Part shown: positions 11,166 through 51,996 of the stretch, in pieces
How the letters are laid out: every line of letters begins with the position of its first letter
How positions within the stretch are numbered: the stretch's first letter is position 1
NCBI GenBank assembly: GCA_963965975.1
Contig: OZ014413.1
Span: 7,404,501 to 7,468,500 of the forward strand
Origin: Xestospongia bergquistia
Taxonomy: Eukaryota > Porifera > Demospongiae > Haplosclerida > Petrosiidae
Reading direction: 5' to 3'
DNA length: 64,000 nucleotides
Notes under the pieces: model-generated
Told to the model about the DNA's origin: nothing
The model's input: the letters and a program-made list of their open reading frames with translations, nothing else
The model's database searches: none
Translations under genes and position numbers: made by a program

Positions 11166-11295
11166 CACTAGTATATATAGTATGAAAAGTAGACAAGTAA
11201 CAGTAGCTGCAATATTCCAAAAAAACAGTAAGTATGCAATCTTTAGTTTCAGTTATTATATTTACTTTATTACTTTGTTAACAATACTAGTCATC
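11166..11295 (+). promoter_or_regulatory. TATA box and 5'UTR intron of beta-helix copy 1
   Basis: TATATATA at 11172-11179, then 'gtagacaagtaacagtagct', then the donor-like GTAAGT, and ATACTAG just before TCATCATG. The same arrangement occurs in the other copies with a start (TATA at 17546, 23094, 34367, 37410), so it is a conserved core promoter plus a short leader intron. Confidence 0.6.
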
Positions 11296-14200
11296 ATGTC
11301 TTGTTTGGTTATTTTTCTTAATATTCTATTATCTCAAGTTGTTCTTTCCTACAACTGGGAACATAAGATCTATGTTAGTACTACTGCTGGGATCAATGAT
11401 ACCATTTGTTGGACTAATGGACAACACACACCATGTGCTACTATTAACCAAGCACTGAAAGGACTACAACATAACTCCACTGTCATCTACATTACTCCTG
11501 GTATCTATATACTGGAATATGGGAATGAGGAGCAACTGAGAGAAAAGTCTCAAGTGGCAATAATTAATAATGTAAGTGACAGTCAAGATGAGCAACAGAA
11601 AGTAGTTATTAAATGTAGTTTGCTTGCTGGTCTGTCATTCTTGTGGTCTGATAACATTACTATCAAATCCTTCACACTTCATGGTTGTGGATGTATTCAG
11701 CTCAGTCAGTATTAGTTGATCATAAATTATTACAAATCTCTACAATAATTGTAATTGTTAATCGATTAGCTGAAGGTATTGGACTCAACCTGTTTTCAAG
11801 TATATAGAAAACACTTTACAGAAATAACAGAACATCTGCCATTGAAGTACATGGAAGTGTAATTACAATAAATTCTGGTACTAAAGTGAGCTTTATTAGT
11901 AACAGTGGATCATATGGTGGAGCTCTTGCTTTATATGAGTGTAGTTATATTGTACTTTATAATGAGACAAAGTTAACATTTATAAACAATACACCTATTT
12001 CTAAAGGAGGGGCTATTTACTCTGGATTCTGTAACACACAAAGAACTTGTCATTTTCAATTAAGTTGATGTTTGGTCAGGTATTATATCTCAAATGTTCA
12101 CCGTGATAATTAGATAACTGAATTGAATTTTTCTTCTAGTCTAATAATGAAGTCATCAATATATATGCTCAATTTGTATATCCAACACCAAATGCTATAT
12201 ATGCTACCTCATTATCATCATGCTGGTGGCCACTATTACCAAACACTTCTAATATTACACTGTCTAGTATTAAGAGATCATTATGTTGGAATAACTGGAC
12301 ATATACACCAGATAATAGCACTACTAGTATACAGTCTGGAGTGGCTTTTTTTAACAGAAGTGAATATTTGAACATTCAACCAGGTGCAAGGTTGACAATG
12401 ATTGGATATGATGGAACTGGTAACATAGCTACAGAAAAATTGCAAGTATGTTTATCTTTAAATGAACTTACTTCTATGTATGTCAATTGTATAATAGCAT
12501 CTGAACCTATCATTTATCAGTTTTATCAGGAAATAGATTGTTTAAGTATTGATTCCTCCTGTTACTAGTATGTTGCTACATTGGATGAAGTACCCCTTGA
12601 AGTTAATTATAAAATATCATTTGACAACTGTATATGGCCCTTTCAACTAAATCAGAGAGACAACCAATATTTATATCCGTTCTTGTATATCTGTGAAATG
12701 ACCATACCTGGATTAGACTGTTCTGAAAACTGGTTCCCAAGTGAAAAATGTACTATTGGTTCAAATTATACTAGTTCATTATTAGGTTATTGTCTGTCTA
12801 GTTACAATTCACACCCAGTGATTGGAAGGTGTCCACTATCAAGGCGATATGTTGCATCTAATTACTTTTATAATAACCAATTTTATACCTATGATAATTA
12901 CGTATCCACAGTATTGAATGATATTGCAAATGATGGAGCATTTCCTTATATGGGAAGGCTTAACGGTGCTTGTAAAACTGATAGTTGTGTTCCTATTAAT
13001 TCACCATTTCTTATATGCGCCAATCAGTCAAATACATGGAAATATGGTTATGTATATCAACATGATTTGCTATTATTTTTTACAATTAAAATGATACCTT
13101 TAACTTTGTTGGTTAGTGTCTTGATAGTTTTCAATATAAAACTAACAAATAGTTTATTTAATGGATATGTCTTCTATTGTCAAATTTTATCTATATCTTT
13201 TATTAGAATAGGATACTTTCGGATTTATGGTAGGGATTATCCTTCTTTTGGTTATTATGATGAATTCATTATCAATTTATTTGATATTCCACAAAGCATG
13301 TGGAGTCTTAATTTTCTCACTTTAGTACCATATATTTGTATTACACCTACTATGGGATCACTAGGAGCCATTGCCTTTTGGTATGTCATAGCAGCCTATC
13401 CATTTCTTCTTGTCTTATTTCTTTATGGCTGGATTACAATGTACAACAGCGGCTTCAGGTGTGTAGTCAGGATAACATGACCTATTCATCGTTTCCTAGC
13501 ACGTTTCTGGCGTATGACTGACTATATGTTTTATGTCTTATGTTTTACTCAGTTTACTGCTAATTCTCTTAAACTCCTCCACTTCACAAAGTGGTACAGT
13601 CTTTCTAATGAAAATGAAACTGAGATAGCATTTTACTATGATGGTACATTGAATTATTTTGGTTATCCTCATGCATTTCTAGGTATCTTAGCTCTAATCA
13701 TCTTGATTGTTGTTGTGTTCATACCAACAGTCTATCTTTTACTTCACCCATTCAAGTGGTTTCATAAGATACTAGATTGGTGTAGATTGAAACATTCACA
13801 ATTTGTTATCACTCTTGTTGATGATTATACTGGAACCTTTAAGAATGGATGTGATAATAATAAAGATCACTGTTATAATTTGTATTTATTACATTCCTAT
13901 TGAGAAATATCATATCATTCTGGGTATACAAGCATCTTTATTTGCTATGGGAGGTCGTAGTATTATGATATTTCACCCTTTCCTTAAGAATATGCATAAT
14001 TTTTTAGAGTTTTTAATATTTTTAGTCTTGGCAGTAATTAGTGGCATCAGTTTTTTCTGAATATGGTTACATAAATCTTTTTTTGATCTACTTGCCACCA
14101 GGTGTTGTTTTCATATATTGCATTTACTGGATCATTAAAAAAATTACAAGTTGCTGTTTCTATTGTAGACCAATCAAACAAAAATGAACTGAGACTAATG

Positions 14201-14463
14201 ATGAATACATTTTACCTCTTGATGATGATGACACATTTGCTGATCGTGTTATGAATCCAGATGAATATGATGAACATCATGTTAGTGATGGTTTTCCTCC
14301 AGCAAAAATAGAGCCTCTTACCACACACTATCAAGAAATGATCACCATCAATCCTTTATTAACTACCAGCACTAGATCAAGACATATTGGTAATAAGAAA
14401 TCTAATAATTCTAATAACAATACACTTACAAGATTATTACTTGATGAACAAAATGAACTTTGA
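11296..14463 (+). pseudogene. Beta-helix/multi-TM protein, copy 1 (chimeric pseudogene)
   Basis: Starts with an intact signal peptide (MSCLVIFLNILLSQVVLS) and the first ~130 residues, then stops at 11713-11715. About 11716-11800 is not coding: it matches the 3' flank of the family (14565-14650, 41765-41850), as if a gene end had been joined here. Homology resumes near 11821 at RTSAIEVHGS, so about 1.0 kb of ectodomain is missing. Later lesions are TGA at 12066, TAG at 12566, TGA at 13478, loss of the FAGLYLLLR segment after 13860 with a frame change, and TGA at 14185. The C-terminal tail with NPDEYDEHH is still open (14251-14463). The degraded frame rules out a normal product, although short pieces could be transcribed. 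Confidence 0.9.
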
Positions 14464-16451
14464 ACCTTTATTTAAATATGACTTTTTGCTTTGTGAATAA
14501 TAATTATTGTTGTGCGTGTTAAAAAATGCTACCTGAATGTGAAATTTATTAAAATTATTTTGTTTCTTAATTGATTGTGAATTATTACAAATTGCTACAA
14601 TAATTATATTTGTTAATTGTTTAGCTGCAGGTATTGGACTTAACCTTTATTCTATTATTAATGCAGTATAGCAATGTCTATATATACGTAGGAATGGTCT
14701 GGATTGTCCATTGAATAAGCATAAAATGATGAGTATATCTAAGTAATAGCTGATCAATACAGCAAAATCTAAGTAATAAATGAGGTATAAGTGAATGTAG
14801 GACATATTTGTAAGTCACATAGTCATTTTGGCAGCTTCATTTTATATACCTCTTTCATCCATGCAATTTTCACATAATAACCTTGGATGCCAGATAAACA
14901 TATACACTTACCTACCATTATTGACTCTCTCACACTTTGAAATAACTTCAAAAATGTCAGAACTAGAAATCACCTGAACAAGAAAATTGTTCTTCTATTT
15001 CTCCACAATAACACAATATTCTATGAAGTTTCATAATAATTTTAGGACGAGAGAAAAAACATTTTAAGACTCCTTAGGAACAGACCATACAACTACGCAG
15101 CTTCCTTGTAACTAGAATTATTTACGAAATGATAGTTTTTGGCAATCTACAGCTTAGTATCATCAAAGCTTACATATTAATATAATTCATTTATTGTAGA
15201 TGTACTGCATGAGAATTATAATTTATCATTAAAATTAATAAGTAAACTAAATCAGAGAATCTTCCTGAACAGTTACAATACCACGTGAACAAGTGAAGTG
15301 TTATGTTATGGAGTCCCGTCTGTATCAAAATTGGGAAATGATCATAATATGTTAAATATGTCAATATTTGTTAAATAATTCTTGATTTGCTTCGTATTTA
15401 TTTAATAAATCAGGCATTATTTAGTAAATCACAGTTATTTTAATAAACCATAAGTTAATTTAACAAATAACGAGTACTATATATAAAAAGTAAATCATAA
15501 CATCTTAACTGTGCCATTGAATACATTCAAATTTGATACAAACATAACCCCATACTCTGGTGTCTCTATTGTCAAGTTGGATTCGTTTTACAGTTGCAGA
15601 GAGAGATGCTATAACGAAAAAAAAGATGTAGTTTGATATAATTTGTCAATATATCGCATAAAGTGTGCTGAATGACTATTTTAACACAATGCTTTGTCTG
15701 TTCAGCACATTTACTTGTACTGATTCATTTAAAACAAGACATTTATCTATTATATGGTGGTATGATTCCTTTTAAGATTATAATGGCTGAGTGAAGTGCA
15801 TGTGTAAATTTATAGTAACATAAGCACCCAACTTTTCTATGAAAAAATGTCATTAGTTCGAGCCATTAGCTATATTAGTAATCTAAACAGTATATATTGT
15901 GTTTAGTTTTTGTATTCCTATAAGTAACTTGTATAACTATATCTATATTAATAAAATTAACTAATCAATTTTTACAGCGAGGTATATATGTAATATATAA
16001 ACTATAGCTTTGAAATGTATTGAACAAATATATCCCTTAAGATGAGAAGGGCAGTGTGGTTTGGCTTGAAGATATTTGACTAATCATAGCAAGGGTAAAT
16101 TTGAGGTGACAAACCACATTGCCTTTACAAACTAGAAAACGATAGATGAATATACATGAAAGTGAAGGATATACATGTGGTCTTACTGCTCACTTGCATA
16201 GCAGTAACAGCACTATTATTATTATCTTCCTCTTCTACCCTATTATTGTACATGTGGTCTTATACACCCAAGGTGAAAGGTATACATGTGGTCTTACTGA
16301 TCACTGTTGCTGCCTTATATATATATGGTTGCATTGAATACTGCCATCTTTAGTTATCAGTTAACTTATCACTTACAACTTATCATCTTGAGCTCATACC
16401 TTAGTCTATCTTTTGTGCAGTTGTGACAGTTATTTATTGAGCACAGGTATC
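14464..16451. other. 3' flank of beta-helix copy 1, duplicated block
   Basis: Gene-free. From about 14560 to 15760 the sequence repeats at 35370-36365 (landmarks 'ataaccttggatgccagata' and 'accccatactctggtgtc'), and its first part also follows the intact copies (21890-22310, 41760-42390). At 16146-16300 'tatacatgtggtctta' recurs; the small ORFs there are not supported as genes. Confidence 0.6.
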
Positions 16452-17032: not shown

Positions 17033-17540
17033 CATAATCTGTTCGCGTTCAACTTGCCGCCGGAAATTAGTAGTGGGTGTAAGTAGTATACATAATGCAT
17101 ACCAAAGATCATAAATTAAATACTTGTGGTGTTATTCTTATATCACATGAAAATAAAAGCCCACGTGTCTGCGTGTAGAGTTCATTTTCTTTACTGTAAA
17201 AACAAATTTATTAGCTACAGTAGTATAGTACTTTTATCTATATCTATATAATTAAAATTTTACAGTTAGAATGAATTTCTGACCGTACTCTTCAAACGAA
17301 AGCCATTTTATTGATTAACGAAATTCACGAGATCACATTCCTCGTGGTCAATAGCATCTCCTATACTATGTTTATGGGAAGTACAACAAGTCTTGTTCTT
17401 GTGGGTCCTATCATATAAAAATGACGTCAAAAGAACCGGATGGGTCGCGTCGTCAGGGACTTTCAAATTTTGAATTTGATCGAGTTATTAGAAAGTTATG
17501 ATAATTATTACCGGTACCGGCAAGGTGAACACGAACAGAC
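17033..17540 (+). promoter_or_regulatory. Inserted upstream block of copy 2, with CRE motif
   Basis: In copies 1, 3 and 4 the conserved sequence around 'tctgatcatg' is followed within about 60-80 bp by the TATA box. Here the two are separated by about 500 bp of sequence that is locally richer in GC and contains a perfect CRE-like TGACGTCA (17422-17429) and 'taccggtaccggcaaggtga'. Its right part (about 17280-17540) is almost identical to 22840-23090 before the 5' stub. It may be a mobile insertion or an alternative promoter. Confidence 0.5.
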
Positions 17541-17672: not shown

Positions 17673-20600
17673 ATGTCTTGTTTGGTTGTCTTTCTTAATA
17701 TTCTATTATCTCAAGTTGTTCTTTCCTACAACTGGGAACATAAGATCTATGTTAGTGCTACTAGTGGAATAAATGATACCACTTGTTGGACTAGTGGACA
17801 AAGCATACCATGTGCTACCATTAACCTAGCACTGAAAGGACTACAACATAAGTCCACTGTCATCTACATTACTCCTGGTATCTACATACTGGAATATGGA
17901 CAAGAAACACAACTGAGAAACAAGTCTCAAGTGGCAATTATTGGTAATGTAAGTGACAGTCCAGGTGAGCAACAGAAAGTAGTTATTAAATGTATTTCCC
18001 TTACTGGTCTGTCATTCTTGTGGTCTGATAACATTACTATCAAGTCCCTCACATTCCATGGTTGTGGAGGTGTTCAGGTCAGTACTAGTAGAAACTTCTC
18101 TTCACAATCATTTGAACTCTTGATGTTCCAAGTGGCAGTGTACATGTTATATTGTCAAAATGTACATATAATGGATGTAGTGATTGAGTCATCTAATGGT
18201 ACTGGTCTTACTATATACAATACATTGGGTAATGTAACAATATCTGGGTGTTCATTTATTGAGAATGGAGTTGGAATATCATATGGAGGAGGAGGGTTAC
18301 AAATAGAATGGTCATATTGTGATCCAGAGAATGGATGGGATTGTCCTGAAGAGGGTCCTTCACTACTAGATGATAACAATCATAGTTTATATAACATTAT
18401 CAATTGTAGTTTTACTTCCAATAAGGCTCAAAGAGAGTCTTTGTTATCTCATTATTATAAGCTAAGTAATCAAGGTAGAGATAGCTATATGCTTGGTAGT
18501 GGAGGAGGAGTATCTGTTATTTTTAAAGGTCAGGCCAATAACAACAAGATTATCATGTACTACAACATACTAGAAGATAACCAGGCTGATCATGGAGGTG
18601 GATTATACATAGGTTACTATGACAATGTTTATAATAACAGTATTGAGATGAGTCATATGAATGTTACTAATAATAGTAATACTGATGTTAATCATGTTGG
18701 TTTAAATGCAGACAGAGGAGGAGGTGGAGTCAAAATAGTACATGTTTCAATGTACAGTACAGTCATTAATCAGTTAGTAAACATGTTTGAAATGACATCT
18801 TGTAACATATCTAGCAATACTGGTATTATTGGTGGTGGACTAATGATAGAGACTGGTACAATATTCAATCTTCATCTTGTTGATATAGTCTTTGGTGGTA
18901 ACATTGCATATCAAGGTTCAGCATGTTACTTTACCAATGGAATTGATTTTAGTCAGCATTTAGAAACAATCAAACTATCAAAATGTATTTTTAGAAGTAA
19001 CGAACCTGTTTGTGATAATATAGATGATGTATACAGCTTTACTTGTTCTGGTACACTATATTCCAGAAGTGTACCTATATCATTTAATGGTATCAATATA
19101 TTTAGTGATAACAGAGCATCTGCCATTGAAGTACATGGAAGTGTAATTACAATAAATCCTGGTACTGAAATGAGCTTTATTAGTAACAATGGATCATATG
19201 GTGGAGCTATTGCTTTATATGAGTGTAGTTATATTGTACTTTATAATGAGACAAAATTAATATTTAGTAACAATATAGCCACTTCTAAAGGAGGAGCCAT
19301 ATACTCTGGATTCTGTAACACACAAAGGACTTGTCATTTTCAATTAAGTTGTTGTTTTGTCAGGTATTATATCTCAAATGTTCACCCTGATAATTGGAAA
19401 ACTGAATTGAATTTTTCTTCCAATAAAGTAATCAAAATATATGCTCCATTTGTACGTATAACACCAAATGCTATATATGCTACTTCATTATCATCATGTT
19501 GGTGGCCACTATTACCAAACACTTCTAACATTACACTGTCTAGTATTAAGAGAACATTATGCTGGAATAATTGGAACTATAATTGTACTACTAGTATACA
19601 GTCTGGAGTGGCTTTTCTTAATGACAGTGAACATTTGAACATTCAACCAGGTGGAAGGTTGTCAATGATTGCATATGATGGAACTGGTAACATAGCTACA
19701 GAAAAATTGGAAATATGCTTATCTTCAAATGAACTTAGTTCTTTGGATATCATTTGTATAATAACATCTGAACCTATTATTTATGAGTTTTGTCAGGAAA
19801 TAGATTGTTACTTGCATGTTGCTACATTGGATGAAGTACCCCTTCAAGCTAAATATAAAATATCATTTGACAGCTGTACATTCCCCTTTCAACTTAGTCA
19901 GATAGAGCAATATTTATATCCGTTCTATGCGTATGCATGTGAAATGACTATACCTGGATTCTGCTGCTCTCAAAACTGCCTTTCAAGCAACCAATGTACT
20001 GTTGGTTCAAATTATACTGGTACATTATTTGGTTATTGTCTGTCTAAGTACAATTTACAGCCAGTGATTGGAAGATGTCCACTATCAAGGCAGTATATTC
20101 CATCTGTTTACTCTAATAATCAGCAATTTTATACCTATGATGACTACATATCTACAGTATTAAATGATACAGTAAATCATAAAAGATTTAATTGTATGGG
20201 AAGGCTTAATGGTGCTTGTAAAACAAATAGTTGTGTTCCTATTAATTCACCATTTCTTAGATGCGCGCATCAGTCAAATACTTGGGAATTTGATCACGTA
20301 TATCATCATGATTTGCTATTATTTTTTACAATTGAAATGATTCCTTTAACTTTGTTGGTCAGTGTTTTAATTGTTCTCAATATAAAACTAACAAATGGCT
20401 CCTTTAATGGATATGTCTTCTATTGTCAAATTTTATCTCTATTTCTTACTAGAATAGGATACCTTCAGCTTTATTATGATGAAGATAATAATGAATTTTT
20501 TAATGATAATTATAACGATTTCCCTATTAAGATTTATAATATTCCACAAAACATATGGAATCTTAATTTCCTTGATTTTGTGCCACTTGTACCATATGTT

Positions 20601-21809
20601 TGTATATCATCTAACATGGGATCACTAGGAGCTATTGCCTTCTGGTATGTTATAGCAGCCTATCCATTTCTTCTACTCATATTTCTGCATGGCTGGATTA
20701 CAATGTACAACAAAGGCTTCAGGTGTGTTGTCAGGATAACACGACCTATTCATCGTTTTCTAGCACGCTTCTGGCGTATGACTGACATTCAACCTTCCTT
20801 CACTCATTCTATATCCTCAATATATGTCTTATGTTTTACTCAGTTTACTGCTACTTCTCTTAAACTCCTCCACTTCACAAAGTGGTACAGTCTTACTAAT
20901 GGAATTGAAACTGGGATAGCATTTTACTATGATGGTACATTGAATTATTTTGGTTATCCTCATGCATTTCTAGGTATCTTAGCTATAATCATCTTGATTG
21001 TTGTTGTGTTCATACCAACAGTCTATCTTTTACTTCATCCATTCAAGTGGTTTCATAAGATACTAGATTGGTGTAGATTGAAACGTTCACAATTTGTTAT
21101 TACTCTTGTTGATGATTATACTGGAACCTTTAAGAATGGATGTGATAATACAAATGATTATCGTTATTTTGCTGGACTCTATTTGCTATTGAGGATTGTT
21201 ATAATTTGTCTTTATTACTTTCCAATTCAGAAGTATCATATCATTCTGGGTATACAAACATCCTTATATGTTATCACAGGTGGTAGTATTATGATATTTC
21301 GTCCTTACCGCAAGAATTTACATAATTTCTCAGAATTTTTAATATTTTCAATCTTGGCATTAAATAGTGGCATCAGTTTGTCTACTGAATATGGTTACAT
21401 ATTTGCTTTTTTAATCTACTGGCCACCAGGTGTTGTTTTCATATATTGCATTTACTGGATCATGAAAAAAACTACAAGTTGCTGCTTCTATTGTAGACCA
21501 ATCAAACAAAAACAAACTGAGACTACTGATCAATATATTTTACCTCTTAATAATGATGACACATTTGCTGATCGTGTTATGAATCCAGATAAATATGATG
21601 AACATCATATTAGCATTGTTCGATCTGAGTCTCCTTTAACAGAAACAGAGCCTCTTATCACACATTATCAAGAAATGACTCACCATGTCTCTATCAATCC
21701 TGTATCAACTACCAGGACTAGATCAAGACATAGTAGTAATAATAAATCTTATAATTCTAATAGCAGTACATTTACAAGATCATTACTTGATGAAAATAAT
21801 GAACTTTGA
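17673..21809 (+). CDS. Giant beta-helix ectodomain, about nine-TM membrane protein (copy 2)
   Basis: A 1378-residue protein in one coding exon. Signal peptide at residues 1-18. Residues about 20-700 form an Asn/Ser/Gly-rich ectodomain with repeated GGGL/GGGV and short hydrophobic strands (SGCSFIENGVGISYGGGGLQ, NISSNTGIIGGGLMIETG), typical of right-handed parallel beta-helix (pectate-lyase-like) folds; there are many N-glycosylation sequons. A Cys-rich juxtamembrane part (about 705-875) precedes hydrophobic spans near 881-904, 911-930, 985-1008, 1042-1066, 1098-1121, 1164-1182, 1187-1209, 1219-1240 and 1243-1264. The motif DDYTGTFKNG...DYRYFAGLYLLLR resembles multi-pass proteins I recall from sponges and cnidarians. 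After the last span come a Cys cluster (SCCFYC), NPDKYDEHH and a Ser-rich tail. The predicted site is the cell surface; ligand and signalling are unknown. An alternative start at 17610 adds 21 residues. Confidence 0.85.
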   Translation: MSCLVVFLNILLSQVVLSYNWEHKIYVSATSGINDTTCWTSGQSIPCATINLALKGLQHKSTVIYITPGIYILEYGQETQLRNKSQVAIIGNVSDSPGEQQKVVIKCISLTGLSFLWSDNITIKSLTFHGCGGVQVSTSRNFSSQSFELLMFQVAVYMLYCQNVHIMDVVIESSNGTGLTIYNTLGNVTISGCSFIENGVGISYGGGGLQIEWSYCDPENGWDCPEEGPSLLDDNNHSLYNIINCSFTSNKAQRESLLSHYYKLSNQGRDSYMLGSGGGVSVIFKGQANNNKIIMYYNILEDNQADHGGGLYIGYYDNVYNNSIEMSHMNVTNNSNTDVNHVGLNADRGGGGVKIVHVSMYSTVINQLVNMFEMTSCNISSNTGIIGGGLMIETGTIFNLHLVDIVFGGNIAYQGSACYFTNGIDFSQHLETIKLSKCIFRSNEPVCDNIDDVYSFTCSGTLYSRSVPISFNGINIFSDNRASAIEVHGSVITINPGTEMSFISNNGSYGGAIALYECSYIVLYNETKLIFSNNIATSKGGAIYSGFCNTQRTCHFQLSCCFVRYYISNVHPDNWKTELNFSSNKVIKIYAPFVRITPNAIYATSLSSCWWPLLPNTSNITLSSIKRTLCWNNWNYNCTTSIQSGVAFLNDSEHLNIQPGGRLSMIAYDGTGNIATEKLEICLSSNELSSLDIICIITSEPIIYEFCQEIDCYLHVATLDEVPLQAKYKISFDSCTFPFQLSQIEQYLYPFYAYACEMTIPGFCCSQNCLSSNQCTVGSNYTGTLFGYCLSKYNLQPVIGRCPLSRQYIPSVYSNNQQFYTYDDYISTVLNDTVNHKRFNCMGRLNGACKTNSCVPINSPFLRCAHQSNTWEFDHVYHHDLLLFFTIEMIPLTLLVSVLIVLNIKLTNGSFNGYVFYCQILSLFLTRIGYLQLYYDEDNNEFFNDNYNDFPIKIYNIPQNIWNLNFLDFVPLVPYVCISSNMGSLGAIAFWYVIAAYPFLLLIFLHGWITMYNKGFRCVVRITRPIHRFLARFWRMTDIQPSFTHSISSIYVLCFTQFTATSLKLLHFTKWYSLTNGIETGIAFYYDGTLNYFGYPHAFLGILAIIILIVVVFIPTVYLLLHPFKWFHKILDWCRLKRSQFVITLVDDYTGTFKNGCDNTNDYRYFAGLYLLLRIVIICLYYFPIQKYHIILGIQTSLYVITGGSIMIFRPYRKNLHNFSEFLIFSILALNSGISLSTEYGYIFAFLIYWPPGVVFIYCIYWIMKKTTSCCFYCRPIKQKQTETTDQYILPLNNDDTFADRVMNPDKYDEHHISIVRSESPLTETEPLITHYQEMTHHVSINPVSTTRTRSRHSSNNKSYNSNSSTFTRSLLDENNEL

Positions 21810-22837: not shown

Positions 22838-23192
22838 CCGTTTTCTCTCTTCAAACGGCGGCCATTTTATTGATTAACGAAATTCACAAGATCACATTCC
22901 TCGTGGTCAATGGCATCTCCTATACTATGTTTATAGGAAGTACAACAAGTCTTGTTCTTGTGGGTCCTATCATATAAAAATGACGTCAAAAGAACCGGGT
23001 GGGTCACGTCGTCAGGGACTTTCAAATTTTGAATTTGATCGAGTTATTAGAAAGTTATGATAATTATTACCGGTACCGGCAAGGTGACCTTTGTATATAT
23101 ACAGTGAGAACAGTAGACAAGTAACAGTACTTGCAATATTCCAAGCAAGGAGTAAGTATGCAATCCTTTAATTTCAGTTTTTATGTTTACTT
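22838..23192 (+). pseudogene. Beta-helix gene 5' stub (promoter, leader and intron only)
   Basis: Almost identical to 17280-17630: CRE motif TGACGTCA at 22981-22988, TATA at 23094-23101, the same leader and GTAAGT. The similarity ends abruptly at 23192, inside the leader intron, where the sequence becomes 'ggagggaatgaatcc', which begins a block repeated at 44757. No family coding sequence follows, so the promoter now faces unrelated DNA. Confidence 0.8.
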
Positions 23193-23563
23193 TGGAGGGA
23201 ATGAATCCATACTAATACTTGCAACTTCTTAACCATGCAGGTATTATGTCATGTCTCTTAAAATTATGTTATTGGCAGACATTTTGACATAATGTTTACC
23301 TCCTATCTCAACAATGTCTGTTTATATAATGGTTGTAGTATTTCATTATGGATTTTTTAAGCATCAAAATTAATTTTAAACTAAAAGTTTTTTCTGTCAC
23401 TACTTTACTAAGACTTGTAATAAAATTATAACATACTAAACTGAATTATTGACATTTTCTTTATCTCTCTCCTTTAACACACACCAAAGTATATTCATAG
23501 ACTTTGTGTGTTGTCATATTACAAAGTAGGTGTGTCTAGCTTTTTTGTGTGTGTGGCCTCCTT

Positions 23564-23737
<174 letters not shown>

Positions 23738-32825: not shown

Positions 32826-34366
32826 TTATCCAGCTTCTCCTGTCAGTATTTTGAGCCTCTTGAATATGAATACTGAATGATATTTGATAACAGCCCCATG
32901 ATCCTATACTCACTCATTGATGAATATCAATCATGACTATATAGTAAAAGAAGAATGTGTCTTGATCGATTATATGTTATTTCATTGAGAATGTTTGTTC
33001 ATCTGCATGTCTTGATAGTATTGTATTCAGTGTGGTTAAGACTGAATGAAAACTAATAGATAAAGTACATTTACATAATGCTATAAAAAGAAAAATGCAT
33101 GTCCAAATAAGGTTGAAACACTTCAATGGTCAATTTTGTAAATCATCATTCTGTAATTAATTCATATTTTCAAAAGAATATGAATAAATTGAAGTGACCA
33201 AAATACATGGATCTATTTAATAACAAACATCAACATCTCTCATCATTTTCTCTAGTAATATACACTAGTAACACTACTATCAAAAATTAAAAGACATATA
33301 TAGGATTGTTATGTTCTTCCAAACTTAAGCAATGTATTATAAAGATACAATGAATATTTCTCCATCAATCAGGACGCTCAGTTAGCTGCATATATGTTTA
33401 CGGCTTAGGAGTGGAAATTAGCATCATAATAAATAAGATAGCATGGATAGCCAGCCTGATATATATTTACAAATAACAACTGTCTTAAAGAATATTGTTG
33501 AAATAAGTATAATTATTTAACCACTGCTTCGATGATTAGAATTAAGGATAAAAACTAAAAAGCTATGCATTTTGAATGCCAGAAGCTATATAATGATTAT
33601 TATTATTACACGGGTTGATTAATATTGAGGTTACCTCCTTTTATATGCTATTACTGTTTAGTTATCCACAGCTATAATAACGATCGACCTTAAGGAGTTC
33701 CAACGACAATCATTTCTCATAAAATAGTTTGCTGAAAGGAGTGGCAGTAAAAGAAGGGTATAAATTAATATCCTATTTTATGGCTGGTCTGTTCCTACGA
33801 AGCATTGTCCAAAAAGTATATGTGTAACATATAAGCTGTAGCATTAAAGTTTATTCAGCAAATTTAACCCTTGAAGTTGGAATTGCAATGCACCTCAATA
33901 TTTACTCAAGCGAGGTTTAACATCCAGATATTTTCCTGACAAAACCAGGGCAAATATCGACTTGCCAGACCACACCACATTGCTTTGACCATCAAGGGAG
34001 GTATAGTTGAATACAATTCAAGGTCAATAATATGGCAAAACTTCCTGACCAACACGGTAGAAAAGGTCTCAATAGCTCTTCCTGATTATACAATAATGGC
34101 TATTTATTAAATATGGTACATATAATTATATACAGAGGTTTCAAGAGGTATATACTGAGAAATCATGCTCAAAAAAGACATCTGATATATCTTATAGAAC
34201 AACATCAAGTACTAGTTATGACAGATTATACACATATATTTATATGGACGCGGTTTCCAAATCACTTTATGAATAAGATTAAAATTCATAAGATATGCTA
34301 TCTGAGGTTATTACATCATTCTGATCATGCGCAATTGCATTATGAGTTTTTGCATGTTATCACTGG
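32826..34366. other. Gene-free interval; right part is duplicated upstream flank of copy 3
   Basis: No exon recognised from 32826 to 33525. From about 33530 the sequence parallels 10140-11165, the upstream flank of copy 1. Confidence 0.55.
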
Positions 34367-34495
34367 TATATATATAGTAGGAACAGTAGACAAGTAACAG
34401 TAGCTGCAATGTTCCAAGCAAGGAGTAAGTATGCATGCAATCTTTTGAATTCAGTTACATATGTTTATTTTATTTTGTTAAGGATACTAGTCATC
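34367..34495 (+). promoter_or_regulatory. TATA box and 5'UTR intron of copy 3
   Basis: TATATATATA at 34367-34376, leader with 'gtagacaagtaacagtagct', GTAAGT near 34427, acceptor ATACTAG ending at 34490. A 4-bp repeat ('gcatgcaatc') in the intron relative to copy 2 supports its being noncoding. Confidence 0.55.
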
Positions 34496-35282
34496 ATGTT
34501 TTGTTTGGTTGTCTTTCTTAATATTCTATTATCTCAAGTTGTTATTTCCCTCGGCTTGGAACATAAGATCTATGTTAGTGCTACTATTGGGATCAATGAT
34601 ACAATTTGTTGGACTAGTGGACAACATACACCATGTGCTACCATTAACCCAGCACTGAAAGGACTACAACATAACTCCACTGTCATCTACATTACTCCTG
34701 GTATCTATACACTGGAATATGGAAATGAAACAGAACTAAGAAACAAGTTCCAAGTGGCAATTATTGGTCATGTAACAGACAGTCCAGGTGAGCAACAGAA
34801 AGTAGTTATTAAATGTAGTTCACTTACGGGTCTGTCATTCTTTCAATCTGACAACATTATTCTCCAGTCCCTCACCCTCCATGGTTGTAGAGGTGTTCAG
34901 ATCAGTACTAGTAGGAACTTGTCTTCACAATCATTTGAACTCTTGATGTTCTAAGTGGCAGTGTACATGTTATATTGTCAGAATGTACATATAATGGATG
35001 TAGTGATTGAGTCATCTAATGGTACTGGTCTTACTATATACAATACAGTGGGTAATGTAACAATATCTGGGTGTTCATTTATTGAGAATGGAGTTGGAAT
35101 ATTATATGGAGGAGGTTGGCTACAAGTACAATGGTTCTATTGTGATCCAAAGAATGAATGGGATTGTCCTGATGAGGGCCTTTTGCCAATAAATGATAAC
35201 AACAATAGTTTATATAACATTATAAATTGTAATTTTACTTCCAATATAGCACAAGGAGGGTCTTTCTTATCACATTATAATA
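34496..35282 (+). pseudogene. Beta-helix protein, copy 3 (truncated pseudogene)
   Basis: Signal peptide and the first ~260 ectodomain residues are recognisable. An in-frame TAA at 34952-34954 replaces the Gln codon in the MFQVAVYMLY segment; the frame then resumes to SFLSHYNK, where a (CA)n tract (35283-35316) interrupts it. Beyond the tract and a small hairpin the sequence is the family's 3' flank, so about 3.3 kb (the rest of the ectodomain and all membrane spans) is deleted with the break at the microsatellite. Confidence 0.9.
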
Positions 35283-35283
35283 A

Positions 35284-35320
<37 letters not shown>

Positions 35321-35362: not shown

Positions 35363-37409
35363 TAAATATATGGGCATAAAACGGTGAGTATATCGAATTG
35401 ATAGCTGATTAATACAACAATATTTAACGAGTGAGTCATAAATATAGGAAATACTTGTAAGTCTCATAGTTATTTTGGCAGCTTGATTTCTTATACCTCT
35501 TTCATCTACACAATTTTCACATAATAACCTTGGATGCCAGATAAACATAAGCACTTACCTACCATTATTGAGTCTCTCATAGCTTGAAATAACTTCAAAA
35601 AATGTTAGAACTAGAAATCATCTGAACAAGAAAATTGTTCTTCTATTTCTTCCACAATAACACAATATTGTATAAAGTTTCATAATAGTTTTAGGACGCA
35701 TTTTGAGACTCCTTAGGAACAGACCATACAACTACACAGCTTCCTTGTAACTCGAAATTATTTACGAAATGATAGTTTCTGGCAATCTACAGCTTAGTAT
35801 CATCAAAGCTTACATATTAATATAATTCATTTATTGTAGATGTACTGATAATTTTAATTTATCATTAAAATTAATAAGTAAACTAAATGAGAATCTTCCT
35901 GAACAGTTACAATACTATGTGAACAAGTGAAGTGTTTATATTATGGGGTCCTGTTTGTATCAAAATTAGAAAATGATCATGATATGTTAAATATGTCATT
36001 ATTTATTAAATAACTCTTGATTTACTACTTATTTATTTAATAAATCATGCATTATTTACTAAATCACAAGATATTTTAATAAACCATAAGTTAATTTAAC
36101 AAATAACAAGTACTAGCATTATAATAAAATGTAAATCATAACTTCTTAACTGTGTCATTGAATGCATTCAAATTTGATACAAACATAACCCCATACTATG
36201 GTGTCTCTATTGTCAAGCTGGATTCGTTTTACAGCTGCAGAGATGCTATAACGTAAAAAAAAAGATGTAGTTTAATATAATTTATTAATATATCACATAA
36301 AGTGTGCTGAATGACTATTTTAACACAATGCTTTGCCAGTTCAGCACATTTACTTGTACCGATTCACTTAAAACAAGAGCATGTGTACATGAGCATGTGT
36401 ACATAAGCATGTGTACATAGGTGGATATGTTATTTTACCACACGTGTGTTAAATCAGCACATGGTGTATGTGTCATCAATAATTTAGCTGATAATTAATA
36501 TTTCTTAACTTATTTTATTCTGTGAATATTTATATAAAGGAACAGATAGTGTTGGGGTTTAGGAAGGTTTAGGAGTGGGTATAGGAAACATGCAGTTACG
36601 TTGCAGTAAAAGAAAGCACTAATGGAATGCCATGGGTTACAAACGGCACCTCACAGGGGACAGTCTGAGATCAAGCATATTTAATTAATATTGAACCCTA
36701 TCCACCTAAACCCTAGCCCTGAACATTAAGTGTTAAAGTAGATCTATGTAGTCTAAAGTTCGAACTCAGACTATCCAAATGGCCATGCCTGAAGGTTGGA
36801 CTGCCACTGGGCTGCTGTATGTTTCGATGAATAATTTAGACCATGCCTACACAGGTATCACTAGTGTGTGCCTGAATATGTTTGTATAATTACTTTATAT
36901 AACCCTCAGCTTGACTTTGAGCTGATGTCTTGGAATTTACGTCTGATATTGTTGTTATTCACAGAATGTCATGGTATGTAATATACACTATGACCTCAAG
37001 ATGTATAGCATTATATTTATTACATGTATTCTTGTTTTTTCAAACTATTTAAATATCAATACATACCACAATATATATAATGCTAATGTTCTTACTCTTT
37101 AATATTGATGCCATATACTCAATTCACCTTTAAAAGTAATTAGTTGACTTAACCAATATGTGGTTGTACAGATTGCGTGTATCAATTTATTTTGATGCAA
37201 AAAAGTAAACATACTACTGTTTTGATTACTAATGTACTATTGTTTATGTAGCAAATTGTAGAATCAATATAATTATAATCATTTTTGTTGGTATTTTGCG
37301 TGAATGAGTTATAAGACACAAATAATATTCATGAGGTGTGTTGTCCGAGGTTATTGCATCATTCTGATCATGTGTAATTACATTATGAATCCTTGCATGT
37401 GATCACTAG
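35363..37409. other. 3' flank of copy 3 and spacer before copy 4
   Basis: 35370-36365 duplicates 14560-15760. At 36377-36418 a 14-bp unit 'gagcatgtgtacat' is repeated three times. 36530-36900 looks like single-copy DNA without a gene. 37190-37255 ('tactactgttttgattacta') resembles 46094-46145 and may be a shared MITE. Confidence 0.55.
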
Positions 37410-37535: not shown

Positions 37536-40500
37536 ATGTCTTGTTTGGTTGTCTTTCTTAATATTCTATTATCTCAAATTGTTCTTTCCTACAACTGGGA
37601 ACATAAGATCTACGTTAGTGCTATTATTGGGATAAATGATACTACTTGTTGGACTAGCGGACAGACCACACCATGTGCTACCATTAACCTTGCACTGAAA
37701 GGACTACAACATAAGTCCACTGTCATATACATTACTCCTGGTCTTTATACACTGGAATATGGACAAGAGACACAACTGAGAGACAGGTCTCAAGTGGCAA
37801 TTATTGGTAATGTAACAGACAGTCCAGGTGAGCAACAGAAAGTAATTATTAAATGTAGTTTGCTTGTTGGTCTGTCATTCTTGTGGTCTGATAACATTAT
37901 TCTGCAGTCCCTCACATTCCATGGTTGTGGAGGTGTTCAGGTCAGTACTAGTAGAAACTTGTCTTCACAATCATTTGAACTCTTGTTGTTCCGAGTGGCA
38001 GTGTACATGTTATATTGTCAAAATGTACATATAATGGATGTAGTGATTGAGTCATCTAATGGTACTGGTCTTACTATATACAATACAGTGGGTAATGTAA
38101 CAATATCTGGGTGTTCATTCATTAATAATGGAGTTGGAATATCATATGGAGGAGGTGGGTTACAAATTGAATGGTCATATTGTGATCCAGAGAATGAATG
38201 GGATTGTCTTGAAGAGGTTCCTTCACTACTAGATGATAACAATGATAATTTATATAACATTATAAATTGTAGTTTTACTTTCAATACAGCACAAGGAGGG
38301 TCTTTGTTATCTCATTATTATAAGCTAAGTAATCAAGGTAGAGATAACTATATGCTTGGTAGAGGGGGAGGAGTGTCTATTATCTTTAAAGGCCAAACTA
38401 GTAATAACAAGATTATCATGTGCTACAACATACTACAACATAACCTGGCTGATGATGGAGGTGGATTATACATAGGTTACTATGATAATGCTTATAATAA
38501 CAGTATTGAGATTAGTTATATGACTGTTACTAATAATAGTAATACTGATGTTAATCATGTTGGTTTAAATGCAGACAGAGGAGGAGGTGGAGTCAAAATA
38601 GTACATGCTTCTATGTACAGTACAGTCATTAAACTATTAGTAAACATGATTGAAATGACATCTTGTAACATGTCTAACAATACTGGTATTATTGGTGGTG
38701 GATTAATGATAGAGACTGGTTCAACATTTAATCTTCAACTTAGTGATATAGTCTTTGTTAGTAACATTGCATATCAAGGTTCAGCATGTTACTTTACAAA
38801 TGGAATTGATTTTAGTCAGCATTTAGAAACAATCAAACTATCAAAATGTATTTTTAGAAGTAATAAACCTGTTTGTGATGATACAGATAATGTATACAGC
38901 TTTACTTGTTCAGGTACACTATATTCCAGAAGTGTACCTATATCATTTAATGGTATCAATATATTTAGTGATAACAGAGCATCTGGCATTGAAGTACATG
39001 GAAGTATAATCACAATAAATTGTGGTACTGAAATGAGCTTTATTGGTAACAGTGGATCATATGGTGGAGCTATTGCTTTATATGAGTGTAGTTATATTGT
39101 ACTTTATAATGGGACAAAGTTAACATTAATAAACAATACAGCCATTTTTAAAGGAGGAGCTATATACTCTGGAATCTGTAACACACAAAGAACTTGTCAT
39201 TTTCAATTAAGTTGTTGTTTTGTCAGGTATCATATCTCAAATGTTCACCCTGATAATTGGATAACTGAATTGAATTTTTCTTTGAATAAAGTAATCAATA
39301 TATATGCTCCATTTGCACTAAATGCCATATATGCTACCTCATTATCATCATGTTGGTGGCCACTACTACCAAACTCTTCTAATATTACACTGTCTAGTAT
39401 TAAGAGAACATTATGTTGGAATAACTGGAACTATGCATCAGATAATTGTACTACTAGTATACAGTCTGGAGTGGCTTTTCTTAATGAGAGTGAACATTTG
39501 AACATTCAACCAGGTGCAAGGCTGTCAAGGATTGGTTATGATGGAACTGGTAACATAGCTACAGAAAAATTGCAAATACGTTTATCTGTAAATGGAATCA
39601 ATTATAATTATATTGATTGTACAATAACGTCTGAATTAATTGTTTATCAGTTATGTCAACACGAAAATTGTACAGATGCTGATTCTTTTACTTACTTGCA
39701 TGTTACTACATTAGATGGAGAGCCTCTTGAGGCTAATTATAAAATATCTTTTGAGAACTGTACATGGCCCTTTCAACTTAATCAGCAATATTTCTATGTG
39801 TATGCATGTGAATTGACTATTCCTGGATTAGACTGTTCTGAAAACTGCTTCTTAAATAACAAATGTACTATTGGTTCATATTATACTAGTACATTATTAG
39901 GTTATTGTCTGTCTAAATACAATTCACAGCCAGTGATTGGAAGGTGTCCACTATCAAGGCAATATGTTGCATCTAATTACTTTTATAATTACCAATTTTA
40001 TACCTATGATAATTACATATCCACAGTATTGAATGATATAGTAAACGATGAAAGATTTAATTATATGGGAAGGCTTAATGGTGCTTGTAAAACTAGTAAT
40101 TGTGTTCCTATTAATTCACTATTTCTTGTATGCGCAAATCAGTCAACTAAATGGGAATATGATCACGTATATCATCATGATTTGCTATTATTTTTTACAA
40201 TTGAAATGATACCTTTAACTTTGTTGGTCAGTATCTTAATACTTCTCAATATAAAACTAACAAATGGTTCATTTAATGGATATGTCTTCTATTGTCAAAT
40301 TTTATCTCTATCTTTTATTAGAATGGGATACTTTGGGATTTATGGTTGGGATTATCCTTCTTTTGGTTATTATGATGAATCCAGTATCAATTTAATTGAT
40401 ATTCCACAAAGCATGTGGAGTCTTAACTTTCTCACTTTAGTACCATATATTTGTATTACACCTTCTATGGGGTCTCTAGGAGCCATTGCCTTTTGGTATA

Positions 40501-41660
40501 TCATAGCAGCCTATCCATTTCTTCTTGTCTTATTTCTTTATGGCTGGATTACAATGTACAACAAAGGCTTCAGGTGTGTAGTCTCTATAACACGACCTAT
40601 TCATCGTTTTCTAGCACGTTTCTGGCGTATGACTAACATTCAACCTTCATTTACTCATTCTATATCCTCAATATATGTGTTGTGTTTCACTCAGTTTGCT
40701 GCTACTTCTCTTAAACTCCTCCACTTCACAAAGTGGTACAGTCTTACTAATGAAAATGAAACTGGGATAGCATTTTACTATGATGGTACATTGAATTATT
40801 TTGGTTATCCTCATGCATTTCTAGGTATCTTAGCTATAATCATCTTGATTGTTGTTGTGTTCATACCAACAGTCTATCTTTTACTTCATCCATTCAAGTG
40901 GTTTCATAAGATACTAGATTGGTGTAGATTGAAACGTTCACAATTTGTTATCACTCTTGTTGATGACTATACTGGAACCTTTAAGAATGGATGTGATAAT
41001 ACAAATGATTATCGTTATTTTGCTGGACTCTATCTGTTATTGAGGATCATTATAATTTGTCTTCATTACATTCCTATTGAGAAGTATCATATCATTCTAG
41101 GTATACAAACATCTTTATGTGCTATGGCAGGTGGTTGTATTATGATATTTCGCCCTTTCCGTAAGAATATACATAATTTCTCAGAGTTTTTAATATTTTT
41201 AGTCTTGGCAGTAATTTGTGGCATCAGTTTGTCTTCTGAATATGATTACATAAATCTTTTTTTAATCTACTTGCCAGCAGGTGTTGTTTTCATATATTGC
41301 ATTTACTGGATCATTAAAAAAATTACAAGTTGCTGCTTCTATTGTAGACCAATCAAACAAAAACAAACTGAGACTAATGATGAATACATTTTACGTCTTG
41401 ATGATGATGACACATTTGCTGATCGTGTTATGAATCCAGATGAATATGATGAACATCATGTTAGTGATGTTCAATCTGGTTTTCCTCCAGCAGAAATAGA
41501 GCCTCTTACCACACACTATCAAGAAATGACTCATCATATATCTCTCAATCCTATATCAACTACCAGCACTAGACCAAGACATAGTAGTAATAAGAAATCT
41601 AATAATTCTAATAGCAATACACTTACAAGATTATTACTTGATGAACAAAATGAACTTTAA
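37536..41660 (+). CDS. Giant beta-helix ectodomain, about nine-TM membrane protein (copy 4)
   Basis: A 1374-residue intact paralogue of the 17673-21809 gene (1395 if the ATG at 37473 is used). Same order: signal peptide MSCLVVFLNILLSQIVLS, Gly/Asn-rich beta-helix-like ectodomain, Cys-rich juxtamembrane part, about nine hydrophobic spans, CCFYCRPIKQKQTET, and tail with NPDEYDEHHVS. The stretch from AFYYDGTLNYFGYPHAF through DYRYFAGLYLLLR is essentially identical in both copies. The loop after the second span differs strongly (here GIYGWDYPSFGYYDESS; copy 2 has an Asp/Asn-rich loop), as do parts of the 690-770 region. Copy 1 carries the same loop type as this copy. The role is unknown; a surface receptor or channel-like protein is inferred from topology only. 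Confidence 0.85.
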   Translation: MSCLVVFLNILLSQIVLSYNWEHKIYVSAIIGINDTTCWTSGQTTPCATINLALKGLQHKSTVIYITPGLYTLEYGQETQLRDRSQVAIIGNVTDSPGEQQKVIIKCSLLVGLSFLWSDNIILQSLTFHGCGGVQVSTSRNLSSQSFELLLFRVAVYMLYCQNVHIMDVVIESSNGTGLTIYNTVGNVTISGCSFINNGVGISYGGGGLQIEWSYCDPENEWDCLEEVPSLLDDNNDNLYNIINCSFTFNTAQGGSLLSHYYKLSNQGRDNYMLGRGGGVSIIFKGQTSNNKIIMCYNILQHNLADDGGGLYIGYYDNAYNNSIEISYMTVTNNSNTDVNHVGLNADRGGGGVKIVHASMYSTVIKLLVNMIEMTSCNMSNNTGIIGGGLMIETGSTFNLQLSDIVFVSNIAYQGSACYFTNGIDFSQHLETIKLSKCIFRSNKPVCDDTDNVYSFTCSGTLYSRSVPISFNGINIFSDNRASGIEVHGSIITINCGTEMSFIGNSGSYGGAIALYECSYIVLYNGTKLTLINNTAIFKGGAIYSGICNTQRTCHFQLSCCFVRYHISNVHPDNWITELNFSLNKVINIYAPFALNAIYATSLSSCWWPLLPNSSNITLSSIKRTLCWNNWNYASDNCTTSIQSGVAFLNESEHLNIQPGARLSRIGYDGTGNIATEKLQIRLSVNGINYNYIDCTITSELIVYQLCQHENCTDADSFTYLHVTTLDGEPLEANYKISFENCTWPFQLNQQYFYVYACELTIPGLDCSENCFLNNKCTIGSYYTSTLLGYCLSKYNSQPVIGRCPLSRQYVASNYFYNYQFYTYDNYISTVLNDIVNDERFNYMGRLNGACKTSNCVPINSLFLVCANQSTKWEYDHVYHHDLLLFFTIEMIPLTLLVSILILLNIKLTNGSFNGYVFYCQILSLSFIRMGYFGIYGWDYPSFGYYDESSINLIDIPQSMWSLNFLTLVPYICITPSMGSLGAIAFWYIIAAYPFLLVLFLYGWITMYNKGFRCVVSITRPIHRFLARFWRMTNIQPSFTHSISSIYVLCFTQFAATSLKLLHFTKWYSLTNENETGIAFYYDGTLNYFGYPHAFLGILAIIILIVVVFIPTVYLLLHPFKWFHKILDWCRLKRSQFVITLVDDYTGTFKNGCDNTNDYRYFAGLYLLLRIIIICLHYIPIEKYHIILGIQTSLCAMAGGCIMIFRPFRKNIHNFSEFLIFLVLAVICGISLSSEYDYINLFLIYLPAGVVFIYCIYWIIKKITSCCFYCRPIKQKQTETNDEYILRLDDDDTFADRVMNPDEYDEHHVSDVQSGFPPAEIEPLTTHYQEMTHHISLNPISTTSTRPRHSSNKKSNNSNSNTLTRLLLDEQNEL

Positions 41661-46570: not shown

Positions 46571-47387
46571 TCACTTCTTAGTGGCAACTGTAAAAACTGT
46601 AGCATCAACTGCACTGCTAGATAAAGCAATGTCAGCACCTGAAGTACCTTCACGAGGTTGAATAGTATAGCTAATATCCTTATATCCATTTTCACTCAAA
46701 GCAGAACTACGAAACTCAGGAGTCACACTTAGAGCATAGAATGTCTCTGATCCAACAGAATAATAGTAGTACCCCGAGTCTCCCGATGTTCGGACACCCT
46801 GAAGAATTAGTTTTCCACCTGATTTAAGGTACTTTGTTACTCTACCAATAGCTTGGCTGTACTCTTCACGAGTAGTGCAAGCAGTAGTTAAACATAGACT
46901 GGAGAAAATAATGTCATATGGTCCCTCATAACCAGGAACTAGAAGAGGTGGATCACATAATATATCACATGGTATAACTCCTTTTACAAGGCGTCTTAAG
47001 TCATCCTGTCTTTTTTGAACCTCGTCTTCTCCTTTACCTTCCAAATCTTGAACAACATACTTGAAAAGTGCTGTGAAATCTGGTGCGTTGGGGTCATTGT
47101 CAAGCCACATTTGTAGAGTATTTCGATTTCTTTCAGTATAATTATTCAGCAAACACTATCTCTGATGCATGTAGTGGTGCACTACATTGATATGTAGGTA
47201 CAGGACCACAGCCAAATTCAAGTACCTTCAACCCAGCAGGAGTCGAACCATAAGACTGGAATATATTGTGTAATAGTTTCAATGGCTGAGAGTTCCATTC
47301 GGTGACTATTGCGTACCTATTCTTGATGTACACAAAAGGATCAAAAAGATCATAGGCTACGTAGTCCTGTTTCTTGTCAGTAGCCAT
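46571..47387 (-). pseudogene. NNMT/PNMT/TEMT-family methyltransferase with 4-bp frameshift
   Basis: Single-exon gene starting at MATDKKQDYVAYDLFDP (ATG 47385-47387). The first part ends in the SAM-binding motif VLEFGCGPVPTYQ and HASEIVFAE; the frame then breaks at about 47139-47146 and resumes with YTERNRNTLQMWLDND, running to the stop at 46571. A 4-base TAAT surplus explains the break. The second part holds the post-I/motif II region (YDIIFSSLCLTTACTTREEY) and KSGGKLILQGV. Length without the surplus is about 270 residues, the usual size for this family, which transfers methyl groups from SAM to small amines such as nicotinamide. Apart from this one indel the gene looks intact, so a recent null allele or an assembly error are both possible. 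Confidence 0.8.
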
Positions 47388-47447
47388 TTCAGTTGAGTTA
47401 CTGTTTTGCAGGGCCACGGAAGTACTAGTCTAAACAATTGCTGTAAT

Positions 47448-50679: not shown

Positions 50680-51420
50680 GTAAACTCTTTCTAAGGGAGA
50701 GCCATTGAGATAAAGTATGGGAAAATTGGGGGAATTAGAGGATTTTCTGGAGATAACCATGTATTTGGTCTTGGAGGGGTTAATGGTTAGGTGTTTGGAA
50801 TGGAGCCAAGAGGATAGAAGATCTATACTTCTATACTGGATTGGATTTGCGATGAGTCAGGAGTAACTTTGTAGGGACAAGATAGAAAGATGTCACCAAT
50901 ATATAAAGTAATTGAGAATGGTTGGGGAAGAGAAATAGAGGAGATTTCATTAATGTACAGAATGAAGAATAGTGGGCCTAGAATGGATCCTTGTGGGACT
51001 CCAGAAATCATATCAGATTTGGATGAAAAAGAATGATCAATGACAACCTGTTGAGAACGATGAGTAAGATAACTCTGAATCCAGTTAACTAGGTGAGGAG
51101 GAATGTTGTAGGATAGAAGTGTGTCTAGGAGAGGTCTGTGAGGTATATAGAGACAAAGGCCTTACGTAAGTCAAAGTAGACAGCACAGATAGAGAAGTTA
51201 GAGTCAAGTAGAGAAAAACATGAATGAGTAGTTGTGATAAGAGAAGATTCTGTAGAAAAGGATGGTCTAAAGCAGAATTGATTGCTGGACAAAATTTTGT
51301 TATTTTTACAGAAATTGTGGAGCCAGTCAAAAACATGTCTTTCTATGAGTTTACTAACTAGAGAAAGAAGGAAAATAGGACGATAGTTTGATGGAGAAGG
51401 ATTAGGTGATGACTGCTTGG
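50680..51420 (-). pseudogene. Non-LTR retrotransposon (CR1/jockey-like) reverse transcriptase fragment
   Basis: Read on the minus strand: NYRPI.LLSLVSKLIERHVF, then QFCFRPSFSTESSLI, a FDLRKAF motif, SGVPQGSILGPLFFILYINE, a catalytic-box relic LYIGDIFL where YADD is expected, and SWLHSKHLTINPSKTKYMVI. These are the ordered RT motifs of LINE elements. Frameshifts and stops break the frame, and the YADD box is mutated, so it is dead. Its 5' side abuts the 3' stub of a beta-helix gene. Confidence 0.85.
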
Positions 51421-51431
51421 TTTCAGCAGTA

Positions 51432-51996
51432 TCTTACCATTCTAGGTATACAAACTTTTTTATGTGTTATAGCAGGTGGTAGTATTATGATATTTCATCC
51501 CTTATCAAAAGAATGTACATAATTTCTCAGAATTTTTAATACTTTCAATCTTGGCATTAATTATTGGCATCAGTTTGTCTTCTTAATATATTTATATATT
51601 GATTTTGATCTACTTGCCACAAAGTGTTGCTTTAATATGTTGCATTTACTGGGGAATTACAAGTTGCTGCTTCTATTGTAGACCAATCAAACAAAAACAA
51701 ACTGAGACTACTGAGGAATACATTTTACCTCTTGATGATGATGACACATTTGCTGATCGTGTTATGAATCCAGATGAATATAATGAACATCATGTCAGCA
51801 CTGTTCAATCTGAGTCTCCTTAGCATAAATAGAGCCTCTTATCAGACATTATCAGGAAATGACTCATCATATCACCATCAATCCTGTATCAACTACCAGC
51901 ACTAGATCAAGACATAGTAGAAATAACAAATCAAAAACTTTAATTTTTGATAGTAGTATACTTGCAACATTTTTACTTGATAAAGATGAACTTTGA
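51432..51996 (+). pseudogene. Beta-helix/multi-TM gene 3' stub (copy 5)
   Basis: Matches the family from the HIILGIQTSL span to the stop, including CCFYCRPIKQKQTETTEEYI, FADRVMNPDEYNEHH and the C-terminal tail. Frame is broken by TAA after the span ending SLSS, a short in-frame loss at YWGITSCC, and TAG at 51822-51824. Only the last ~190 codons remain, joined directly to the LINE fragment. Confidence 0.9.

What the first reader, a model, noticed from the sequence alone, without database searches (positions are those of the whole stretch)
11166..51996. Tandem family of beta-helix ectodomain plus about nine-TM proteins with relics in every state
Seen: two intact 1.37-kresidue single-coding-exon genes and four relics (chimera, 5' stub, truncation, 3' stub), all on the plus strand and sharing flanks over kilobases. 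Known: parallel beta-helix repeats are binding scaffolds, and tandem birth-and-death is typical of recognition genes. Inference: this is an actively turning-over surface receptor family. The combination of a very large beta-helix ectodomain with a multi-span membrane part and a conserved tail is not one I can assign to a characterised receptor class.
Basis: partly seen in the sequence, partly recalled or inferred. Interest (0 to 1): 0.85.

Follow-up and report, generated by a model that had tools for sequence, protein, structure and literature searches.

The report
Sponge nine-span beta-helix receptor-like genes
This stretch of what is probably a sponge genome holds two intact and several broken copies of an apparently undescribed family of large cell-surface proteins, built like receptors and apparently multiplied in other sponge genomes too, which could be part of how sponges sense or recognise things.

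Summary
Two intact single-exon plus-strand genes (1378 and 1374 aa) and four relic places are present; the "chimera" is best read as two relics abutted. Structure prediction confirms a right-handed parallel beta-helix, but only to about residue 605. A probable beta-sandwich (642-803) and a Cys-rich knob precede the membrane. The membrane part models well; I read nine spans, N-out/C-in. No PDB fold match was found.

Two capped searches found 84 proteins (one the window's own) and 177 with the membrane module (120 listed); the five with organism names are sponges. Nine contig lengths recur among 30 of the 84, so clustering recurs. N-cap-to-membrane distance falls in three size groups (142 of 146); the long form is the parsimony root state. 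A cytosolic DRxxNPxxY motif occurs in 139 of 205 proteins.

One implied idea is not supported: the beta-helix is a conserved part between paralogs. Divergence concentrates near the membrane, residues 641-980.

Best reading: a sponge-expanded, apparently non-GPCR multi-span receptor-like family undergoing birth and death. Receptor function and ligand are inferred. Paper searches found no description. A weak JAMP-like resemblance of the Cys knob and first span is a lead, not membership.

The parts
11166..11823 (+). relic 1a: 5' flank, codons 1-137, then a 67-bp family 3'UTR-like piece (11725-11791)
11824..14460 (+). relic 1b: 5'-truncated copy (about codons 473-1374) with stops and frame changes
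14719..15742 (+). 3' flank shared with 35374-36382
   Evidence: 88.9%
17673..21809 (+). intact gene 1, 1378 aa, single coding exon (open frame from 17577)
22847..23193 (+). relic: short 5' stub (5' flank plus about 69 bp of coding sequence), like 17288-17645
34280..35284 (+). relic: 5' flank and codons 1-263 (1 stop), ending at a (CA)n tract
35374..36382 (+). family 3' flank behind that relic; the rest of the coding region is missing between
37536..41660 (+). intact gene 2, 1374 aa, single coding exon (open frame from 37446)
37593..39455 (+). gene 2: N-cap and right-handed parallel beta-helix (about residues 20-605) with an irregular linker to 640
39456..39950 (+). gene 2: strand-rich domain read as a beta-sandwich (residues 641-805)
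   Evidence: pLDDT 55-87 by block of ten; not searched alone
39951..40169 (+). gene 2: Cys-rich juxtamembrane knob (residues 806-878), DUF7630-like in some relatives
39456..40475 (+). gene 2: divergent block between paralogs (residues 641-980)
40170..41318 (+). gene 2: membrane module, read as nine spans (residues 879-1261)
40962..41027 (+). gene 2: conserved predicted cytosolic loop and start of span 6, family consensus DxFxGxYKxG...DxRxFAG (residues 1143-1164)
41421..41447 (+). gene 2: cytosolic tail motif DRxxNPxxY (residues 1296-1304)
51421..51996 (+). relic: 3' stub, about codons 1182 to the end, broken

Best explanation
These are members of a large, apparently undescribed family of cell-surface receptor-like proteins in sponges. 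The chain is secreted by a signal peptide. It displays an N-cap, a beta-helix of variable length, a probable beta-sandwich and a Cys-rich knob outside the cell, crosses the membrane nine times and ends in a cytosolic tail. Proposed mechanism: the helix acts mainly as a stalk or scaffold. The ligand, perhaps a glycan or another surface protein, is read mainly by the membrane-proximal sandwich, knob and TM1-ECL1 face. Binding is passed through the conserved TM3-TM5 and ICL3 core to a cytosolic partner that docks on the DRxxNPxxY tail. Genes multiply in clusters by unequal exchange and die by deletion and truncation. Shown or predicted with good confidence: copies and relics, beta-helix, membrane module and its topology, tail-motif conservation, family size, distribution of divergence. 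Inferred: the exact span count, receptor role, ligand face, tail docking.
Against: No ligand, expression, localisation or signalling data. A plain hydropathy scan gives only seven windows over threshold in the membrane part of P0003 and six in P0001, so nine rests on the model and on my reading of it (a further 21-residue helix, 1013-1033, I took as cytosolic). Whole-gene Ka/Ks of the intact pair is 0.60, so no overall positive selection. Silent divergence is also raised in 641-980 (pS 0.209 against 0.135, 1 of 2000 permutations as high), and the block borders were drawn, so recombination or gene conversion could explain the pattern. TM6-9 and the tail also vary (0.24-0.26 in both sets). Only 29 of 47 proteins of the 750-950 size class carry the tail motif, against 29 of 30 of the shortest. 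Only 5 of the 120 proteins listed, and none, carry an organism name.
Confidence: 0.5

Rival explanations
1. Adhesion or allorecognition ligand: the ectodomain binds cells, matrix or microbes, the spans are mainly an anchor, and there is no signal through the membrane.
For: Chlamydia polymorphic membrane protein repeats are matched weakly in 22 of 41 members (below the Pfam cut-off in P0001; the NCBIfam repeat is just above its cut-off in both genes), and the beta-helix PDB matches include adhesin PfbA; gene turnover fits recognition loci.
Against: A multi-helix module with a strongly conserved predicted cytosolic loop and a tail motif in 139 of 205 proteins are hard to explain for a plain anchor.
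Confidence: 0.22
2. Channel or transporter with a large extracellular cap: the spans conduct or carry a solute, and the ectodomain gates or captures it (TRP/Flc-like use).
Confidence: 0.2
3. Membrane-tethered polysaccharide enzyme: the beta-helix is an active pectin-lyase-like or GH-type catalyst.
For: Many of the nearest solved folds are glycoside hydrolases and polysaccharide lyases.
Against: Invariant and near-invariant helix positions are Gly, Asn, Cys, Phe, Ala and Ile only; the ectodomain is much shorter in whole clades.
Confidence: 0.05

Closest known systems
Right-handed parallel beta-helix (pectin-lyase-like) proteins
   Same: Fold of about residues 20-605
   Different: Joined to a multi-span membrane module; no conserved charged residues in the helix; ectodomain length differs between clades
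Adhesion GPCRs and polycystin-1-like proteins (from knowledge, not compared here)
   Same: Very large ectodomain on a multi-span module with a cytosolic tail
   Different: No Pfam 7tm, PKD-channel or PLAT match in the scanned members; nine spans by my reading
Flc/TRP family, PF06011 (number and features recalled)
   Same: Extracellular domain before many spans; UniRef calls three A. queenslandica relatives 'TRP C-terminal'
   Different: No PF06011 hit in any scanned member; beta-helix rather than an ML-like ectodomain (recalled)
JAMP / JKAMP (PF05571)
   Same: Cys-rich knob followed by the first span; one relative scores 22.1 bits, E 1.4e-4, under the cut-off of 25; hhalign probability 37-75%, above all 50 column shuffles in the two comparisons so controlled
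   Different: JAMP proteins are mostly about 300 aa and, as far as recalled, have no beta-helix; similarity covers 63-120 aligned columns only
Sponge expanded recognition families (SRCR, NLR: papers seen only as listings; aggregation factor recalled)
   Same: Lineage-expanded families in sponges proposed in recognition
   Different: Different domains; nothing I saw describes a beta-helix plus multi-span architecture

Membership tests
Right-handed parallel beta-helix superfamily | Beta-helix profile match and solenoid fold | tested here: met
Pectin-lyase-like enzymes | Conserved catalytic acidic or basic residues in the helix | tested here: not met
   No D, E, H, K or R among invariant or 90% positions of residues 20-640 in 55 sequences
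GPCR | Match to a Pfam 7tm profile | tested here: not met
   None for 41 members at E up to 1, nor for 2 proteins, 8 pieces and 20 proteins at E up to 10; the filters drop most matches above about 0.1
GPCR | Seven-helix fold | tested here: inconclusive
   Nine spans by my reading of the model, seven windows by hydropathy in P0003; Foldseek lists GPCR chains only at E 0.9 or worse
TRP/Flc (PF06011) | Match to the TRP profile | tested here: not met
   Absent, including P0168, P0177 and P0152, which UniRef names TRP C-terminal; same filter caveat
TRP/Flc (PF06011) | TRP-like pore fold | tested here: inconclusive
JAMP (PF05571) | Match above the curated cut-off | tested here: not met
   1 of 41 members at E up to 1, 22.1 bits against 25; 1 of 8 pieces, best E 4.9e-5; 0 of 20
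JAMP (PF05571) | Profile-profile homology over the domain | tested here: inconclusive
   Probability 43%, 37% and 75% with three family profiles over 63-120 columns; 50 column shuffles each reach at most 27 (against 38) and 23 (against 37), none run for the third; a single JKAMP sequence is not picked out from shuffles by the family HMMs
Tandem birth-and-death gene family | Several intact copies and relics in an array, recurring in related genomes | tested here: met
   Array. Recurrence: shared contig lengths as a proxy
Surface-receptor family | Ligand binding and signalling | not testable with these tools
   Needs experiment

The most novel reading that the evidence does not exclude
This is a new class of animal membrane receptor: a nine-span module of previously unsolved fold with a Cys knob, a conserved cytosolic ICL3 core and a DRxxNPxxY docking tail. 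It carries interchangeable beta-helix stalks and was expanded into a repertoire within sponges as a candidate sensory, symbiont- or allorecognition system, possibly built from the same ancestor as the JAMP membrane protein.
Probability: 0.3. Interest if true: 0.85.

Novelty: new variant of a known kind. Interest (0 to 1): 0.62.

Why it matters
Sponges distinguish self from non-self and symbiont from food, yet the surface receptors are largely unknown (general knowledge). A large, clustered, turning-over family with one conserved membrane engine and a conserved tail motif gives concrete candidates and tests: tail pull-down, ligand screen, allele survey. The membrane module matched no Pfam family above its cut-off and no solved relative in the searches made here, so a structure would be informative in itself.

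Full report
OBSERVATION. One search finds only two frames longer than 600 codons in the window, 17577-21809 (1410 codons) and 37446-41660 (1404). Counted from the shared Met of MSCLVVFLN..., they encode 1378 and 1374 residues and are 81% identical. A database copy of the second (P0003, 1374 aa, contig of 1.79 Mb) begins at that Met. Self-comparison and tblastn show further pieces only on the plus strand. At 11166-14460, codons 1-137 are followed by codons 473-1374 in broken frames, with 8 stop codons counted in five aligned pieces. At 22847-23193 there is a short 5' stub. At 34280-35284, 5' flank and codons 1-263 are followed by a (CA)n tract and then family 3' flank (35374-36382). At 51421-51993 lies a broken 3' stub. 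One search shows that 11725-11791, between the two halves of the first relic, is 88-90% identical to family 3'UTR at 14580-14646 and 41775-41841. I therefore read that relic as an internally deleted copy lying against a 5'-truncated copy, which fits unequal exchange better than one fused gene. I infer a sponge from the five named relatives, all sponges; the window carries no label.

JAMP LEAD. One relative, P0061, matches JAMP (PF05571) at 22.1 bits, E 1.4e-4, below the cut-off of 25 (1 of 41), over the Cys knob and the first spans. Against 86 JAMP proteins (of 120 listed and 579 found; the named ones are vertebrates), hhalign gives scores of 38, 37 and 45 (probability 43, 37 and 75%) for three family profiles. 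Fifty column-shuffled JAMP alignments reach at most 27 and 23 for the first two; the third had no shuffles. The aligned part is 63-120 columns. I keep this as a lead.

FAMILY. Search of P0002 gave 84 proteins at E up to 0.001, one of them the window's own P0003. A profile of eight membrane parts gave 177, of which 120 were listed and 119 were new. In both searches only about 8000 top candidates were scored. Five of the 120 have organism names: four Amphimedon queenslandica and one Halichondria panicea. Contig length serves as a proxy for contig identity: 9 lengths are shared by 30 of the 84 proteins, up to 6 on one, and by eye the members of each set fall in one clade of near relatives in the tree of the membrane part (80 of 81 rows kept). 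N-cap and membrane module occur in one open frame in 146 of 204 proteins; the distance between them is 250-399 in 72, 400-499 in 20, 650-899 in 50, and outside these in 4. The searches restrict candidate lengths and rank by shared words, so the counts are biased. On a tree of 143 of the 146 (3 left out as unclassified) the three size classes need 5 changes against a minimum of 51 in 200 shuffles, with the long form at the midpoint root. On that tree the ectodomain was shortened in at least three places while N-cap and membrane module were kept, though some backbone nodes have support near 0.5.

TAIL AND LOOP. The motif DRxxNPxxY lies 15-72 residues from the C-terminus in the examples printed and occurs in 139 of 205 proteins (P0002 and P0003 are one gene), against 0.0005 per shuffled sequence. 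By size class it is in 29 of 30 (under 300), 35 of 45 (300-400), 19 of 20 (400-550), 0 of 3 (550-750), 29 of 47 (750-950) and 0 of 1 (longer). Among the most conserved stretches of the membrane part is the predicted cytosolic loop before span 6 with the start of that span: D, G, R and FAG at 90% or more.

WHERE PARALOGS DIFFER. Between the two intact genes Ka is 0.090 and Ks 0.149 (ratio 0.60). Residues 641-980 carry an excess of amino-acid differences (pN 0.152, expected 0.085, no permutation of 2000 as high) and of silent ones (pS 0.209, expected 0.135, 1 of 2000). The helix is below expectation (pN 0.059, no permutation as low; pS 0.113, P 0.04), and spans 3 to ICL3 are lowest (pN 0.025). 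These blocks were drawn, so the permutation values are not those of a blind test. Among seven close relatives the mean protein distance is 0.16-0.17 in the helix, 0.29 in the sandwich, 0.33 in TM1-TM2, 0.42 in ECL1 and 0.05-0.06 from TM3 to ICL3, but also 0.25-0.26 in TM6-9 and the tail. A second set of ten (nine relatives plus P0003, which adds distance) peaks in the Cys knob (0.45) and sandwich (0.37), with 0.15-0.21 in the helix. The most variable face is thus mainly membrane-proximal, not the helix. Since silent changes are raised too, mosaic recombination or patchy gene conversion may be the cause; I do not claim positive selection.

INTERPRETATION. The evidence fits a surface receptor-like family with a conserved intracellular coupling core and a variable membrane-proximal ectodomain, the beta-helix serving as a removable stalk or accessory scaffold. 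Receptor function, ligand and tail partner are inferred. The adhesion-only and channel readings remain open. Ten paper searches (listed under Tried and rejected) and term look-ups in three papers found no account of this family; papers outside the held library were not searched.

Noticed in passing
46571-47155 (-): 194-codon frame matching the NNMT/PNMT/TEMT methyltransferase family (E 3.2e-27).
   Followed up: no
55432-57189 (+): 585-aa frame, hydrophobic in many stretches, without a Pfam match; by eye it looks like a proton-coupled peptide transporter type.
   Followed up: partly
26788-30452 (-): Three frames, the first with a weak leucine-rich-repeat match (E 0.11); by eye two of them resemble sponge NLR-type immune proteins (recalled). 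No convincing family match.
   Followed up: partly
31784-32122: A 339-bp stretch that is its own inverted repeat at 86%, perhaps a hairpin mobile element.
   Followed up: no
1-3430 and 6847-9280: A separate tandem duplication in pieces, 84-94% identical, without matches to this family.
   Followed up: no
23565-23740 and 35285-35316: (CA)n tracts; the second lies at the breakpoint of the 34.3-kb relic.
   Followed up: partly
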